Source: an uncultured Brachyspira sp.
GTDB taxonomy: Bacteria > Spirochaetota > Brachyspiria > Brachyspirales > Brachyspiraceae
Assembly (NCBI RefSeq): GCF_944388875.1
Contig: NZ_CALXKQ010000001.1
Coordinates: forward strand, 62,001 to 126,000
Direction: 5' to 3'
DNA length: 64,000 bases
The notes below the pieces were generated by a model. It was not told where the DNA came from. It made no database searches and was given only the letters and a program-made list of their open reading frames with translations. This document shows, piece after piece, positions 2,434 to 6,328 of the stretch. The position numbers and the translations under genes are program-made. Every line of letters starts with the position of its first letter. The stretch's first letter is position 1.

Positions 2434-2461
2434 TTGACTTATATTGCAATATACATATACT
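2434..2461 (+). promoter_or_regulatory. Promoter of the CoA-disulfide reductase gene with a palindrome in the spacer
   Basis: TTGACT (2434-2439), 16 bases, TATACT (2456-2461) form a good sigma-70 promoter 36 bases before the ATG at 2497. The spacer contains the perfect 14-bp palindrome TATATTGCAATATA at 2440-2453, well placed to be a repressor operator. A strong ribosome binding site (CGGAG) follows at 2483-2487. Confidence 0.65.
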
Positions 2462-2496
2462 AGGTATATATAGATTATATTTCGGAGTTTTAAATT

Positions 2497-4185
2497 ATGA
2501 AAAAAATATTAATAGTAGGAGGTGTAGCAGGAGGAGCTTCCGCTGCTGCCAGACTTAGAAGACTAAATGAAGAAGATAAAATTATATTATTTGAAAAAGG
2601 ACCTCATGTATCTTTTTCAAACTGTTCATTGCCTTATTATATTGGAGGACTAATACCTTCTGAAGATACTTTACTTTTAATGAATCCAGAAAAGTTTATG
2701 AAACAGTTTAATGTTGATGCTAGAGTTAACAGCGAAGTTACAGCAATAGATAGAAATAAAAAAGAGATAACTGTTGTATGTGAAGGCAAAGAGTATAAAG
2801 AAAGTTATGATAAACTTATACTTTCTATGGGAGCAAAACCTATAGTACCTCCTATTAAGGGAATAGAAAAAGTTAATGTATTTACTGTAAGAAATGTTGT
2901 TGATATTAGTAAAATACATAATTTTCTTAAAGGAAAAAAAGATGCTAAAGTGGCTGTTATAGGCGGAGGATTTATCGGTATTGAGATGGCAGAAAATTTA
3001 AAGCATGCAGGATACAATGTAACAATAGTAGAAGCATTGCCTCAGATAATGAAACCTTTTGATTATGATATGGTTCAAATATTACATAGAGAATTAATAG
3101 ATAATGGGGTTAACTTAATAGTTAATGATAAGGTTGATAGTTTTGACACCAATACAGTTATTTTAGGTTCTGGTAAAAAAGTAGAAGCTGATGCTGTTGT
3201 ACTTGCTATAGGGGTTGCTCCTGAAACTGATATAGCAGTAAAAGCAGGAATAGAACTTGGAAAAACTAAGGCTATTAAAGTTGATGCTAATTACCGCACT
3301 AATGATAAAGATATTTATGCTGTGGGAGATGCTATAGAAGTGTACGGTGCTTTATTTAATGATTATTTTAAATTGGCATTGGCAGGACCTGCTCAGAAAC
3401 AGGCAAGAGCTGCTGCAGATCATATAAACGGAAGAACTGTAGATAACAGAGGATTTATAGGTTCATCTGTTATAAAAGTATTCGGATATAATGGGGCTTC
3501 TACAGGACTTTCTGAAGGCTTTATAAAAGCTATGAACTTAAATATAGATTATGATACAGTAGAAATTATTCCTTTTGACGGTGTATCAATAATGCCTTCT
3601 GCAAGACTAATGCATTTCAAACTTATATATGAAGTTCCTACAGGAAAAGTATTAGGTGCTCAGGCAATAGGAAAAGGAAATGTTGATAAAAGAATAGATG
3701 TTATAGCTACTTTAATAAAATTCGGAGGAACTATAGATGATTTGAAAGATTTAGAATTATGCTATGCTCCTTCATTTGGTACAGCTAAAGATGTTGTAAA
3801 TTTTGCTGGTTATGTTGCTTCTAATTTAAAAAACGGAGATTTCAAACAGGTTCATTATAGTCAGGTAAGAGAATTGGTGGAAAAAGATGCTTATTTCTTG
3901 GATGTAAGAATGCCTGAAGATTTTGCTGTAGGACATTTAGAGAAAGCTGTTAATATACCTCTTGGAGCATTAAGAGCTAGAGCAAATGAAGTTCCTAAAG
4001 ACAGACCAGTATATATTACATGCAAAACAGGATTAACAAGCTATACTGCATGCAAAATATTGCAGAACATGGGATTTGATAATGTTATAAATGTATCAGG
4101 CGGTTTTATAGGTTTATCACAATACGAATACTACAATGATAAAGCTACAGGAAGAAAACCTATATTAAGCGGATATTTTGGTTAA
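2497..4185 (+). CDS. cdr: Coenzyme A-disulfide reductase fused to a rhodanese domain
   Basis: The 562-residue protein is an FAD/NAD(P)H pyridine-nucleotide disulfide oxidoreductase followed by a rhodanese domain. Residues 1-50 contain the FAD-binding motif VGGVAGGASAAARL and the single active-site cysteine Cys43 in SFSNCSLPYYIGG, diagnostic of the CoA-disulfide reductase/NADH oxidase/persulfide reductase group. A second nucleotide-binding motif (VIGGGFIGIEMAE) lies near residue 155. The C-terminal ~110 residues are a rhodanese with catalytic Cys509 in CKTGLTS. Fusions of this layout reduce CoA disulfides, CoA persulfides or polysulfide in other bacteria, so a sulfane-sulfur role is likely. 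The gene immediately downstream is a rhodanese-repressor fusion, suggesting co-regulation. Confidence 0.9.
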   Translation: MKKILIVGGVAGGASAAARLRRLNEEDKIILFEKGPHVSFSNCSLPYYIGGLIPSEDTLLLMNPEKFMKQFNVDARVNSEVTAIDRNKKEITVVCEGKEYKESYDKLILSMGAKPIVPPIKGIEKVNVFTVRNVVDISKIHNFLKGKKDAKVAVIGGGFIGIEMAENLKHAGYNVTIVEALPQIMKPFDYDMVQILHRELIDNGVNLIVNDKVDSFDTNTVILGSGKKVEADAVVLAIGVAPETDIAVKAGIELGKTKAIKVDANYRTNDKDIYAVGDAIEVYGALFNDYFKLALAGPAQKQARAAADHINGRTVDNRGFIGSSVIKVFGYNGASTGLSEGFIKAMNLNIDYDTVEIIPFDGVSIMPSARLMHFKLIYEVPTGKVLGAQAIGKGNVDKRIDVIATLIKFGGTIDDLKDLELCYAPSFGTAKDVVNFAGYVASNLKNGDFKQVHYSQVRELVEKDAYFLDVRMPEDFAVGHLEKAVNIPLGALRARANEVPKDRPVYITCKTGLTSYTACKILQNMGFDNVINVSGGFIGLSQYEYYNDKATGRKPILSGYFG

Positions 4186-4209: not shown

Positions 4210-4252
4210 AAAATCTATTTTTATTATATAATATATAATAAGGATAGATTTT
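4210..4252 (+). promoter_or_regulatory. Long inverted repeat in the leader of the rhodanese-CstR gene
   Basis: AAAATCTAT (4210-4218) pairs with ATAGATTTT (4244-4252). Inside it TTATTATATA (4221-4230) pairs with TATATAATAA (4232-4241). Only a two-base internal loop (TT/GG) and the centre interrupt a 19-bp dyad. It ends three bases before the AAGGA ribosome binding site of the gene at 4268. It could be an operator, a weak terminator/attenuator between the two genes, or a translation-control hairpin; the sequence alone does not decide. Confidence 0.5.
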
Positions 4253-4267
4253 AATAAGGATTTAATT

Positions 4268-4873
4268 ATGGTAATAGAAAATGAATTAAAAATAGTATCT
4301 CCTTCGGAGGCGAATGAAATCATTAATAAAACTAATAATATAGTTATTCTTGATGTAAGAACCGAGATGGAGCATAATTATGAAGGTATGATTGAAAATT
4401 CTATTTCTATGGATTTCCTTAAGCCAAGAGTCTTTAAAAGAGAAATATCAAAACTAGATAAAAATACCCCGTATCTTTTATATTGCTCAATAGGTAAATT
4501 AAGCGTCAAGGCGGGCGAATATATGAAAGAAGAAGGATTCAAAGAGATTTATGTATTAGACGGAGGGTTAAAAGCTTGGAATAAAAATTTCGGAGACAGC
4601 AATAAAGTATCTAAGTTTGACAGAGAAGAGGCTTTAGAAAGGCGTAAAAGGCTTATTATTAGATTAAATAGGATAGAAGGACAAATTAAGGGTATGAAGA
4701 AAATGCTTGCTAAAGGGGAATATTGCGGAGATATATTGAATCAATCTCTTGCTGTTAAAGCTGCTATGGGAAGCGTAAATCAGGAAATTATGGAAGTATT
4801 TTTGAATACTTGTATGATATCTCCTAAAGAAAAAGAAGATTTCTTTAGGTATATGAGAAAACTTATAAAGTAA
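4268..4873 (+). CDS. Rhodanese domain fused to CstR/CsoR-type persulfide-sensing repressor
   Basis: The 201-residue protein has two domains. Residues 5-110 are a rhodanese (VILDVRTEMEHNYEG; catalytic-loop Cys73 in YCSIGKLS). Residues 121-201 are a DUF156/CsoR-family all-helical DNA-binding domain (IIRLNRIEGQIKGMKKML, EYCGDIL, FLNTC). The two domain cysteines, Cys153 and Cys182, are 29 residues apart, exactly as Cys31 and Cys60 in CstR. The copper-ligand histidine of CsoR (normally two positions before... in an H-x-x-x-C pattern) is not evident, so persulfide sensing is more likely than copper sensing. The ATG has AAGGA seven bases upstream. The fusion suggests direct sulfur transfer from the rhodanese to the sensor thiols; that is inference. 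Confidence 0.85.
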   Translation: MVIENELKIVSPSEANEIINKTNNIVILDVRTEMEHNYEGMIENSISMDFLKPRVFKREISKLDKNTPYLLYCSIGKLSVKAGEYMKEEGFKEIYVLDGGLKAWNKNFGDSNKVSKFDREEALERRKRLIIRLNRIEGQIKGMKKMLAKGEYCGDILNQSLAVKAAMGSVNQEIMEVFLNTCMISPKEKEDFFRYMRKLIK

Positions 4874-4972: not shown

Positions 4973-6328
4973 TTACTTTCCCCATTCATCTGGATTTTTA
5001 TTCCATTCTAATGCCTTTTTCAATTCATCATCTGTTATATAATTTTCATCTTTTGCAATTTCCATAAGAGATGAAAAATTAGAAAGAGATGAAAATTCAA
5101 TACCTGCATCTGCAAAATTTTTATATGCTTTTTCAAATTCATAAGAAAATATAGCTATAATTTCAAGCCCAATAGCCCCCTCACTCTTAGCAGCCTCAAA
5201 TGCTTTAATAGAACTTCCCCCAGTTGATATTAAATCTTCTATTAATATTAATCTTTTTCCATTACATTCAGCACCCTCTATCTGCTTGCCTCTTCCATGT
5301 TCTTTTTTCTCCGCTCTAATGTAGCAAAGAGGCTTATTAAGTTCATAAGCTATGAAAGATGCCCAAGGAATACCCGCAGTAGCAGTACCAGCTATAACAT
5401 CAAAATCCTTATCTTTTAAAACATTTATAAAAGCATCAACTATAACCTTCCTTGATTTAGGAAAACCTATAACATATCTGTTGTCGCAGTATATGGGACT
5501 CTTTATTCCAGACACAAAAGTAAATGGCTCTTTAACATTCAGCTTAACAGCCTGAGTTTCTAATAATGCCCCTGCTATTAATCTAGCCTTTAATTTTTTA
5601 TTGCTTTCTATTCCTTCAGCAATTTCCTCTACAACCATTTTGCATGCTTTTACTCTGTCCTCACTCCTAGTAATAGGTCTTCCAACAACTAAATAATCGC
5701 ATCCATTTTCTATAGCTTCTTTAGGAGTCATTATTCTCTCCTGATCATCTACACTAGCCCATTTAGGTCTAACTCCAGGACATACTGTTCTAAAATTTTC
5801 ACCGCATTCTTTTTTTATAATGCTAGCCTCTCTAGGAGAACATACAACCCCATCAAGTCCAGATTCTTTACCCAATTTAGCCCAATTAACAGCCAAATCA
5901 GTAAGTGCCAAATTAGAACTGAACATATTTTTTACATCATTTTCTGAAAGACTTGTAAGTATAGTTACACCTATTATAAGATTGTCTTTATTTAATTTTT
6001 TTATCTCCTGAACAGTTTTTTCCATCATCTTTTTTCCGCCGCTGGTATGAACATTAAACATAAATATATTCTGCTTAGCTGCGAAGAGAGAAGCCATAGC
6101 CGTAGTATTTGGTATATCATGGAATTTCAAATCAAGAAATACCTTCTTATTTTTTCCTGCTAAATACTCTATTATCTCACCCTTAGTGTATAAAAAAAGC
6201 TCTAACCCAACCTTATAAAATACAGCCTCATCGCCTAATTCATCTATAAGTTTTGTAGCTTCTCCCATAGAATTAAAATCTAATGCTATAATTAATCTCT
6301 CTTTTGGATTATCAGTTAATTTTATCAT
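4973..6328 (-). CDS. pyrFE: Bifunctional orotidine-5'-phosphate decarboxylase / orotate phosphoribosyltransferase
   Basis: The 451-residue protein fuses the last two enzymes of UMP synthesis. Residues 1-240 are OMP decarboxylase with the catalytic motif FLDLKFHDIPNT (Asp66, Lys68, Asp71) and the phosphate-binding segment VVGRPITRSED. Residues ~245-451 are orotate phosphoribosyltransferase with the PRPP-binding motif LILIEDLISTGGSS and an RAEKKEHG loop. The order (decarboxylase first) is the reverse of animal UMP synthase. It is the last gene of a pyrK-pyrD-pyrFE operon, 22 bases after pyrD. The ATG has AAGGA upstream. Both active-site motifs appear intact. Confidence 0.93.
   Translation of the reverse strand: MIKLTDNPKERLIIALDFNSMGEATKLIDELGDEAVFYKVGLELFLYTKGEIIEYLAGKNKKVFLDLKFHDIPNTTAMASLFAAKQNIFMFNVHTSGGKKMMEKTVQEIKKLNKDNLIIGVTILTSLSENDVKNMFSSNLALTDLAVNWAKLGKESGLDGVVCSPREASIIKKECGENFRTVCPGVRPKWASVDDQERIMTPKEAIENGCDYLVVGRPITRSEDRVKACKMVVEEIAEGIESNKKLKARLIAGALLETQAVKLNVKEPFTFVSGIKSPIYCDNRYVIGFPKSRKVIVDAFINVLKDKDFDVIAGTATAGIPWASFIAYELNKPLCYIRAEKKEHGRGKQIEGAECNGKRLILIEDLISTGGSSIKAFEAAKSEGAIGLEIIAIFSYEFEKAYKNFADAGIEFSSLSNFSSLMEIAKDENYITDDELKKALEWNKNPDEWGK

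What the first reader, a model, noticed from the sequence alone, without database searches (positions are those of the whole stretch)
4268..4873. Rhodanese fused to a CstR-type persulfide sensor, next to a CoA-disulfide reductase/rhodanese
The sequence shows one 201-residue protein with an N-terminal rhodanese (Cys73) and a C-terminal CsoR/DUF156 domain whose two cysteines (153 and 182) are 29 residues apart, as Cys31/Cys60 in the Staphylococcus CstR persulfide sensor. Known CstR proteins are stand-alone and regulate genes encoding separate rhodanese-type enzymes. Here the sulfur-transfer domain is part of the repressor, and the upstream gene is itself a CoA-disulfide reductase/rhodanese. The inference is that the rhodanese domain hands sulfane sulfur directly to the sensor thiols and so derepresses the pair.
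Basis: partly seen in the sequence, partly recalled or inferred. Interest (0 to 1): 0.8.

Follow-up and report, generated by a model that had tools for sequence, protein, structure and literature searches.

The report
Sulfurtransferase fused to a sulfur-stress repressor
Brachyspira and some Fusobacteria carry a gene-silencing protein with a sulfur-transferring enzyme built into it, and a conserved DNA site marks the sulfur-detoxifying gene it most likely controls, so the sensor may load its own chemical switch.

Summary
Window 4268-4873 (+) encodes 201 residues: rhodanese (11-106) plus a CsoR/DUF156 repressor domain (126-190); Cys73, Cys153 and Cys182 are the only cysteines. The architecture is conserved: 23 of 26 genus genomes and 12 of 98 Fusobacteriota genomes, all three cysteines invariant in 15 aligned fusions. 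A CoADR-rhodanese gene is adjacent or clustered in 17 Brachyspira and 10 Fusobacteriota genomes. CoADR promoters from 27 fusion-bearing genomes carry a 17-bp box, ATAC-N9-GTAT (at most one mismatch), on or beside the -10; seven orthologous CoADR promoters without fusion linkage lack it. In the window the box is 2451-2467 and resembles the published site of a persulfide-sensing CsoR (ATACCn6GGTAT). Fusion-bearing Brachyspira genomes have one DUF156 gene, so the fusion is the likely binder. Corrections: the 29-residue Cys spacing also fits copper CsoR; Phe178 is what argues against copper. The 4210-4252 site is not conserved, and the fusion's own Brachyspira promoter has no box, so only CoADR looks repressed. 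CstR control of a CoA-persulfide reductase is already known in Enterococcus. Sulfur relay from Cys73 to the sensor thiols is plausible but untested.

The parts
2434..2439 (+). -35 element TTGACT of the CoADR-Rhd promoter
   Evidence: sequence; TTGACT precedes the box at the same distance in most Brachyspira CoADR promoters
2451..2467 (+). operator-like box ATAC-ATATACTAG-GTAT (ATAC-N9-GTAT) overlapping the -10 hexamer TATACT (2456-2461)
   Evidence: present at CoADR promoters of 27 fusion-bearing genomes in two phyla, absent from 7 orthologous CoADR promoters without fusion linkage; TATACTAGGTATA occurs once in the window's genome, here
2497..4185 (+). CoADR-rhodanese (CoA-disulfide / CoA-persulfide reductase type), 562 aa, Cys43 and Cys509
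   Evidence: Pfam PF07992, PF02852, PF00581; TIGR03385 429 bits, below its cut-off of 578.8; cysteines
4268..4873 (+). rhodanese-CsoR family fusion, 201 aa
4298..4585 (+). rhodanese domain (residues 11-106), active-site loop C73-S-I-G-K-L-S
   Evidence: PF00581; structure matches to rhodaneses including CoADR-RHD and CoAPR; C73 and G76 invariant in 15 fusions
4586..4621 (+). linker between the domains, low confidence at residues 111-115
   Evidence: AlphaFold2 pLDDT below 50 at 111-115
4643..4837 (+). CsoR/DUF156 repressor domain (residues 126-190), Cys153 (X), Phe178 (Y), Cys182 (Z)
   Evidence: PF02583; model of this domain: the top 20 PDB structure matches are FrmR, CsoR, CstR and InrS

Best explanation
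The 201-residue protein is a CsoR-family (CstR-like) thiol-switch repressor with its own sulfurtransferase. At rest its DUF156 domain sits on the ATAC-N9-GTAT box over the -10 element of the CoADR-rhodanese promoter and blocks transcription. When sulfane sulfur (LMW persulfide, CoA persulfide or thiosulfate) rises, the rhodanese Cys73 takes up sulfur and passes it to Cys153/Cys182, forming a persulfide or polysulfide bridge; the repressor leaves and the CoA-persulfide reductase is made. Shown here: both domains, invariance of the three cysteines, the genetic link in two phyla, and a box that goes with the fusion. Inferred: that the fusion binds the box, that persulfidation releases it, and that the rhodanese is the donor. 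The confidence is for the whole chain; I would put the repressor-of-CoADR part alone at about 0.85.
For: Domains. C73, G76, C153, F178 and C182 invariant in 15 fusions from two phyla. CoADR-Rhd adjacent or clustered in 17 Brachyspira and 10 Fusobacteriota genomes. Box exact in 22 of 28 CoADR promoter rows against 0.13 expected in shuffles, within 1 mismatch in 28 of 28 against 4.5 (one genome counted twice, so 27 genomes); spacing 9 in 10 of 10 Fusobacteriota promoters. 0 of 7 exact boxes at orthologous CoADR genes in five fusion-less genomes and as unlinked second copies in two genomes whose fusion-linked copy has the box. In the B. pilosicoli clade the genes are unlinked but the box (one mismatch) stays at CoADR. 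One DUF156 gene per fusion-bearing Brachyspira genome. A persulfide-sensing CsoR of Streptomyces has the site ATACCn6GGTAT (PMC7533328). E. faecalis CstR controls CoAPR (PMC9405070).
Against: No binding or chemistry was measured. The box was first seen in the same promoters on which its frequency was then tested, and the Brachyspira promoters are closely related; only the seven controls were looked at afterwards. Phe178 differs from the Asn of SpCstR. The AlphaFold2 model is a monomer with a loose linker, so reach of Cys73 to the sensor thiols was not tested. G025 keeps the fusion without a full CoADR-Rhd match.
Confidence: 0.55

Rival explanations
1. CstR-like repressor of CoADR in which the rhodanese is a passenger or a separate enzyme: the DUF156 thiols react directly with LMW persulfides as in stand-alone CstR, and the rhodanese works on other acceptors.
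For: Stand-alone CstR reacts with persulfides and polysulfides itself (PMC9774590). The linker is flexible and the DUF156 half is better conserved than the whole protein between Brachyspira clades (89% against 72%).
Against: The fusion is kept in two phyla with C73 and the loop G76 invariant in 15 of 15; no split rhodanese + DUF156 neighbour pair turned up in the regions examined.
Confidence: 0.25
2. The rhodanese resets the switch: it removes sulfur from persulfidated Cys153/Cys182 and passes it on, for example to the CoADR rhodanese, restoring repression.
For: Sulfur transfer by rhodaneses can run both ways (general knowledge); the CoADR partner has its own rhodanese domain that could take the sulfur.
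Against: No sequence evidence separates loading from unloading.
Confidence: 0.1
3. The DUF156 domain is a copper sensor (CsoR) fused to a rhodanese.
For: Best PDB sequence match is Geobacillus CsoR; Cys spacing is identical.
Against: The copper-binding His of CsoR is Phe178 here, invariant in all 15; the clustered genes are sulfur genes, not copper genes.
Confidence: 0.03
4. The box is only a conserved promoter and the CoADR gene is controlled by something else.
For: The box overlaps the -10 hexamer, which would be conserved anyway.
Against: The AGGTAT / GGGTAT extension beyond the -10 is not a promoter element; half-sites keep a 17-bp frame although the -10 lies in the centre of the box in Brachyspira and in its left half in Fusobacteriota; orthologous CoADR promoters without fusion linkage lack it; G116 has a GC-rich version, ATACCCTAGGGGGGTAG, at the fusion's own promoter.
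Confidence: 0.07

Closest known systems
CstR (Staphylococcus, Enterococcus, Streptococcus), stand-alone persulfide sensor of the CsoR family
   Same: DUF156 fold, two cysteines at X and Z, sulfur-gene target; in E. faecalis a target is CoA-persulfide reductase (PMC9405070)
   Different: Here an N-terminal rhodanese is fused, the Y position is Phe instead of the Asn of SpCstR, and in Brachyspira the regulator gene has no box of its own
ScCsoR of Streptomyces coelicolor (persulfide-sensing CsoR)
   Same: ATACCn6GGTAT operator (PMC7533328); the gene circuit includes a separate rhodanese
   Different: Rhodanese and repressor are separate proteins; spacing one base shorter; targets include a persulfide dioxygenase
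YrkD of Bacillus licheniformis
   Same: CstR-like repressor of a sulfur cluster, released by elemental sulfur (PMC9918477)
   Different: Stand-alone
SoxR / SoxT1B signalling in Hyphomicrobium denitrificans
   Same: A YeeE-type importer serves a thiol-switch repressor (PMC11582611); Fusobacteriota fusions sit beside YeeE-type PF04143 genes
   Different: SoxR is ArsR-type (PMC12423496); how sulfur reaches it is undecided; here the carrier would be covalently attached

Membership tests
CsoR/RcnR family (DUF156, PF02583) | HMM match over the curated cut-off | tested here: met
   72.1 bits against 22.8
CsoR/RcnR family (DUF156, PF02583) | three-helix DUF156 fold | tested here: met
   model pLDDT 90.6; top 20 PDB structure matches all CsoR/FrmR/CstR/InrS, best E 2.1e-3, TM 0.75
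CsoR/RcnR family (DUF156, PF02583) | homotetramer that binds operator DNA | not testable with these tools
   only an operator-like box was found
CsoR copper sensor | Cys-His-Cys copper site | tested here: not met
   Phe178 in place of His, invariant in 15 fusions
CstR persulfide sensor | cysteines at X and Z | tested here: met
   C153 and C182 invariant
CstR persulfide sensor | Asn at Y as in SpCstR (ENLTEC) | tested here: not met
   Phe178; whether Asn defines all CstR was not checked
CstR persulfide sensor | stand-alone single-domain protein | tested here: not met
   N-terminal rhodanese in every copy aligned
CstR persulfide sensor | represses sulfane-sulfur genes through its operator | tested here: inconclusive
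   box and linkage shown; repression not measured
CstR persulfide sensor | loss of DNA binding on persulfidation | not testable with these tools
   needs purified protein
Rhodanese (single-domain sulfurtransferase) | PF00581 fold with a Cys at the head of the active-site loop | tested here: met
   61 bits; C73 and G76 invariant, S79 at least 90%; fold matches
Rhodanese (single-domain sulfurtransferase) | sulfur transfer activity | not testable with these tools
   needs an assay
CoADR-RHD / CoAPR (upstream gene) | CoADR flavoprotein plus rhodanese with two catalytic cysteines | tested here: met
   C43 and C509; TIGR03385 429 bits but below its 578.8 cut-off

The most novel reading that the evidence does not exclude
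A self-loading sensor: the fused rhodanese is the obligatory catalyst that turns donors which react poorly with CstR thiols (thiosulfate, CoA persulfide) into persulfide on the repressor's own switch, so the protein senses the substrate of a sulfurtransferase rather than free persulfide.
Probability: 0.35. Interest if true: 0.8.

Novelty: new variant of a known kind. Interest (0 to 1): 0.62.

Why it matters
How sulfane sulfur actually reaches repressor thiols in cells is open: for SoxR, PMC11582611 states that loading by TusA or directly by the transported sulfur cannot be decided yet. A natural protein in which carrier and switch are one chain, with a defined promoter and one point mutation (C73A) that should separate the steps, would make that question directly testable. 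It also places control of CoA-persulfide reduction in gut-associated spirochaetes and in fusobacteria.

Tried and rejected
Inverted repeat 4210-4252 as operator: rejected, not conserved across the genus. Autoregulation in Brachyspira: no exact box upstream of the fusion gene; the one exact Fusobacteriota hit is the shared divergent site (L147); G116 has its own. A wider regulon in Brachyspira: 37 exact TATACTAGGTATA hits in 26 genomes, 18 at the CoADR promoter, 17 inside ORFs, 2 in other intergenic places. Box at the GltP-like symporter beside the fusion in the B. pilosicoli clade: none. YeeE partner in Brachyspira: only weak, unlinked PF04143 genes. Fusion elsewhere: none outside the genus in a 374-genome sample of the phylum nor in 395 genomes of the phylum of a Bacteroidetes MAG (no positive control); plasmid records hold only part-length matches. 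The one genome-contig scan used two short peptide patterns, and Bacillota could not be centred with the tools, so absence elsewhere is not shown. The NAR 2021 paper on CsoR-family persulfide sensors is not held, so an earlier mention of such fusions cannot be excluded.

Full report
Observation. ORF 4268-4873 (+) is 201 aa with PF00581 at 11-106 (1.7e-16) and PF02583 at 126-190 (5.2e-20). Its cysteines are 73, 153 and 182 only. The upstream gene 2497-4185 is CoADR plus rhodanese with Cys43 and Cys509, matching E. faecalis CoAPR C42/C508 by position and context (PMC9405070). NCBIfam cut-offs for CoA-disulfide reductase are not reached (429 against 578.8 bits), so 'CoADR-RHD type' is the safe name.

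Distribution. The same fusion is in 23 of 26 genomes of the genus, which related records name Brachyspira; none was found outside the genus in a 374-genome sample of the phylum. The genome scan found it in Fusobacteriota, and a phylum search found it in 12 of 98 genomes. In 15 aligned fusions from both phyla C73, G76, C153, F178 and C182 are invariant.

Neighbourhood. Full-length CoADR-Rhd is in 22 of 26 genus genomes. By the coordinates it is adjacent to the fusion in 17; in G021 the two lie on different contigs with the fusion near a contig end, so linkage is undetermined; in G001, G007, G015 and G019 the genes are apart; G025 has the fusion without a full match; G006, G010 and G022 have neither. 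In Fusobacteriota CoADR-Rhd is clustered with the fusion in 10 of 12: co-directional with a YeeE-type gene (PF04143) and a permease in four, divergent in six, of which five show YeeE and the sixth contig ends there. G116 has another cluster, with rhodaneses and a flavoprotein; in G063 the fusion starts at a contig edge.

Operator-like box. Reading the upstream sequences suggested a 17-bp box, ATAC-N9-GTAT, at CoADR. It is exact in 22 of 28 promoter rows against 0.13 expected from dinucleotide shuffles, and within one mismatch in 28 of 28 against 4.5. This test is post hoc, on the sequences in which the box was seen. Spacing 9 occurs in 10 of 10 Fusobacteriota promoters, other spacings in 0-3. 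In the window: TTGACT 2434-2439, TATACT 2456-2461, box 2451-2467.

Controls. Seven CoADR-Rhd genes, 60-76% identical to the Fusobacterium protein, were looked at afterwards: five in genomes without a full-length fusion match (G086, G093, G104, G105, G106) and two second, unlinked copies (G097, G095). None has an exact box; the single one-mismatch match lacks ATAC. In G097 and G095 the copy clustered with the fusion has a box (one mismatch). Fisher test for exact boxes, 22/28 against 0/7, p = 2.6e-4 (one of four 2x2 tables run, not corrected for relatedness). TATACTAGGTATA lies at the CoADR promoter in 18 genus genomes, and in the window's genome only there. Fusion-bearing genus genomes have one DUF156 gene each, so no other family member is at hand to bind the box. 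The persulfide-sensing CsoR of Streptomyces has the site ATACCn6GGTAT (PMC7533328).

Own promoter of the fusion gene. No exact box is seen there in Brachyspira; several species show a terminator-like hairpin between the genes (for example L087, judged by eye). So the regulator is probably made independently and only CoADR is repressed. Read-through from CoADR in the window is not excluded.

Structure. AlphaFold2 on 15 sequences: mean pLDDT 83, pTM 0.54, residues 111-115 below 50. The rhodanese half matches Sud, CoADR-RHD and CoAPR structures. DUF156 alone: pLDDT 90.6; the top 20 matches are CsoR, FrmR, CstR and InrS. Only monomers were modelled and no Cys-Cys distance was obtained.

Classification. 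The 29-residue spacing is shared with CsoR, since Geobacillus CsoR aligns without gaps. The Y position is His in CsoR, Asn in SpCstR and Phe here. So the domain is CstR-like in sensing cysteines and likely target, and a distinct subgroup by Y residue and domain layout.

Trees. Brachyspira CoADR is near the Fusobacterium type, while the CoADR of the divergent Fusobacteriota group is far from both; several forks are weak. In the fusion tree Brachyspira is one clade. Exchange between the phyla is likely; direction is unresolved.

Literature. Word searches of the open library found no paper describing a rhodanese-DUF156 fusion; most subscription papers are missing from it.

Noticed in passing
window 4973-6328 (-): Single 451-aa ORF matching orotidine-5'-phosphate decarboxylase (PyrF) followed by orotate phosphoribosyltransferase (PyrE).
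   Followed up: partly
L013 1522-2108; L104 405-991: In a B. pilosicoli T010 record the fusion is split by a frame change near residue 129; sequencing error or real break not decided.
   Followed up: no
L149 4830-5195, L150 2090-2455: Ilyobacter-type genomes carry a stand-alone rhodanese 46-47% identical to the fusion's rhodanese half, in a cluster resembling the one around the G116 fusion (L148): possibly a relative of the pre-fusion rhodanese.
   Followed up: partly
L153-L156: In other Fusobacteriota, DUF156 genes have 185-192 aa frames just upstream of a response-regulator-like gene; the one scanned (L153) holds two DUF156 stretches.
   Followed up: partly
L074: G025 keeps an intact fusion but has no full-length CoADR-Rhd match; its target there is unknown.
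   Followed up: no
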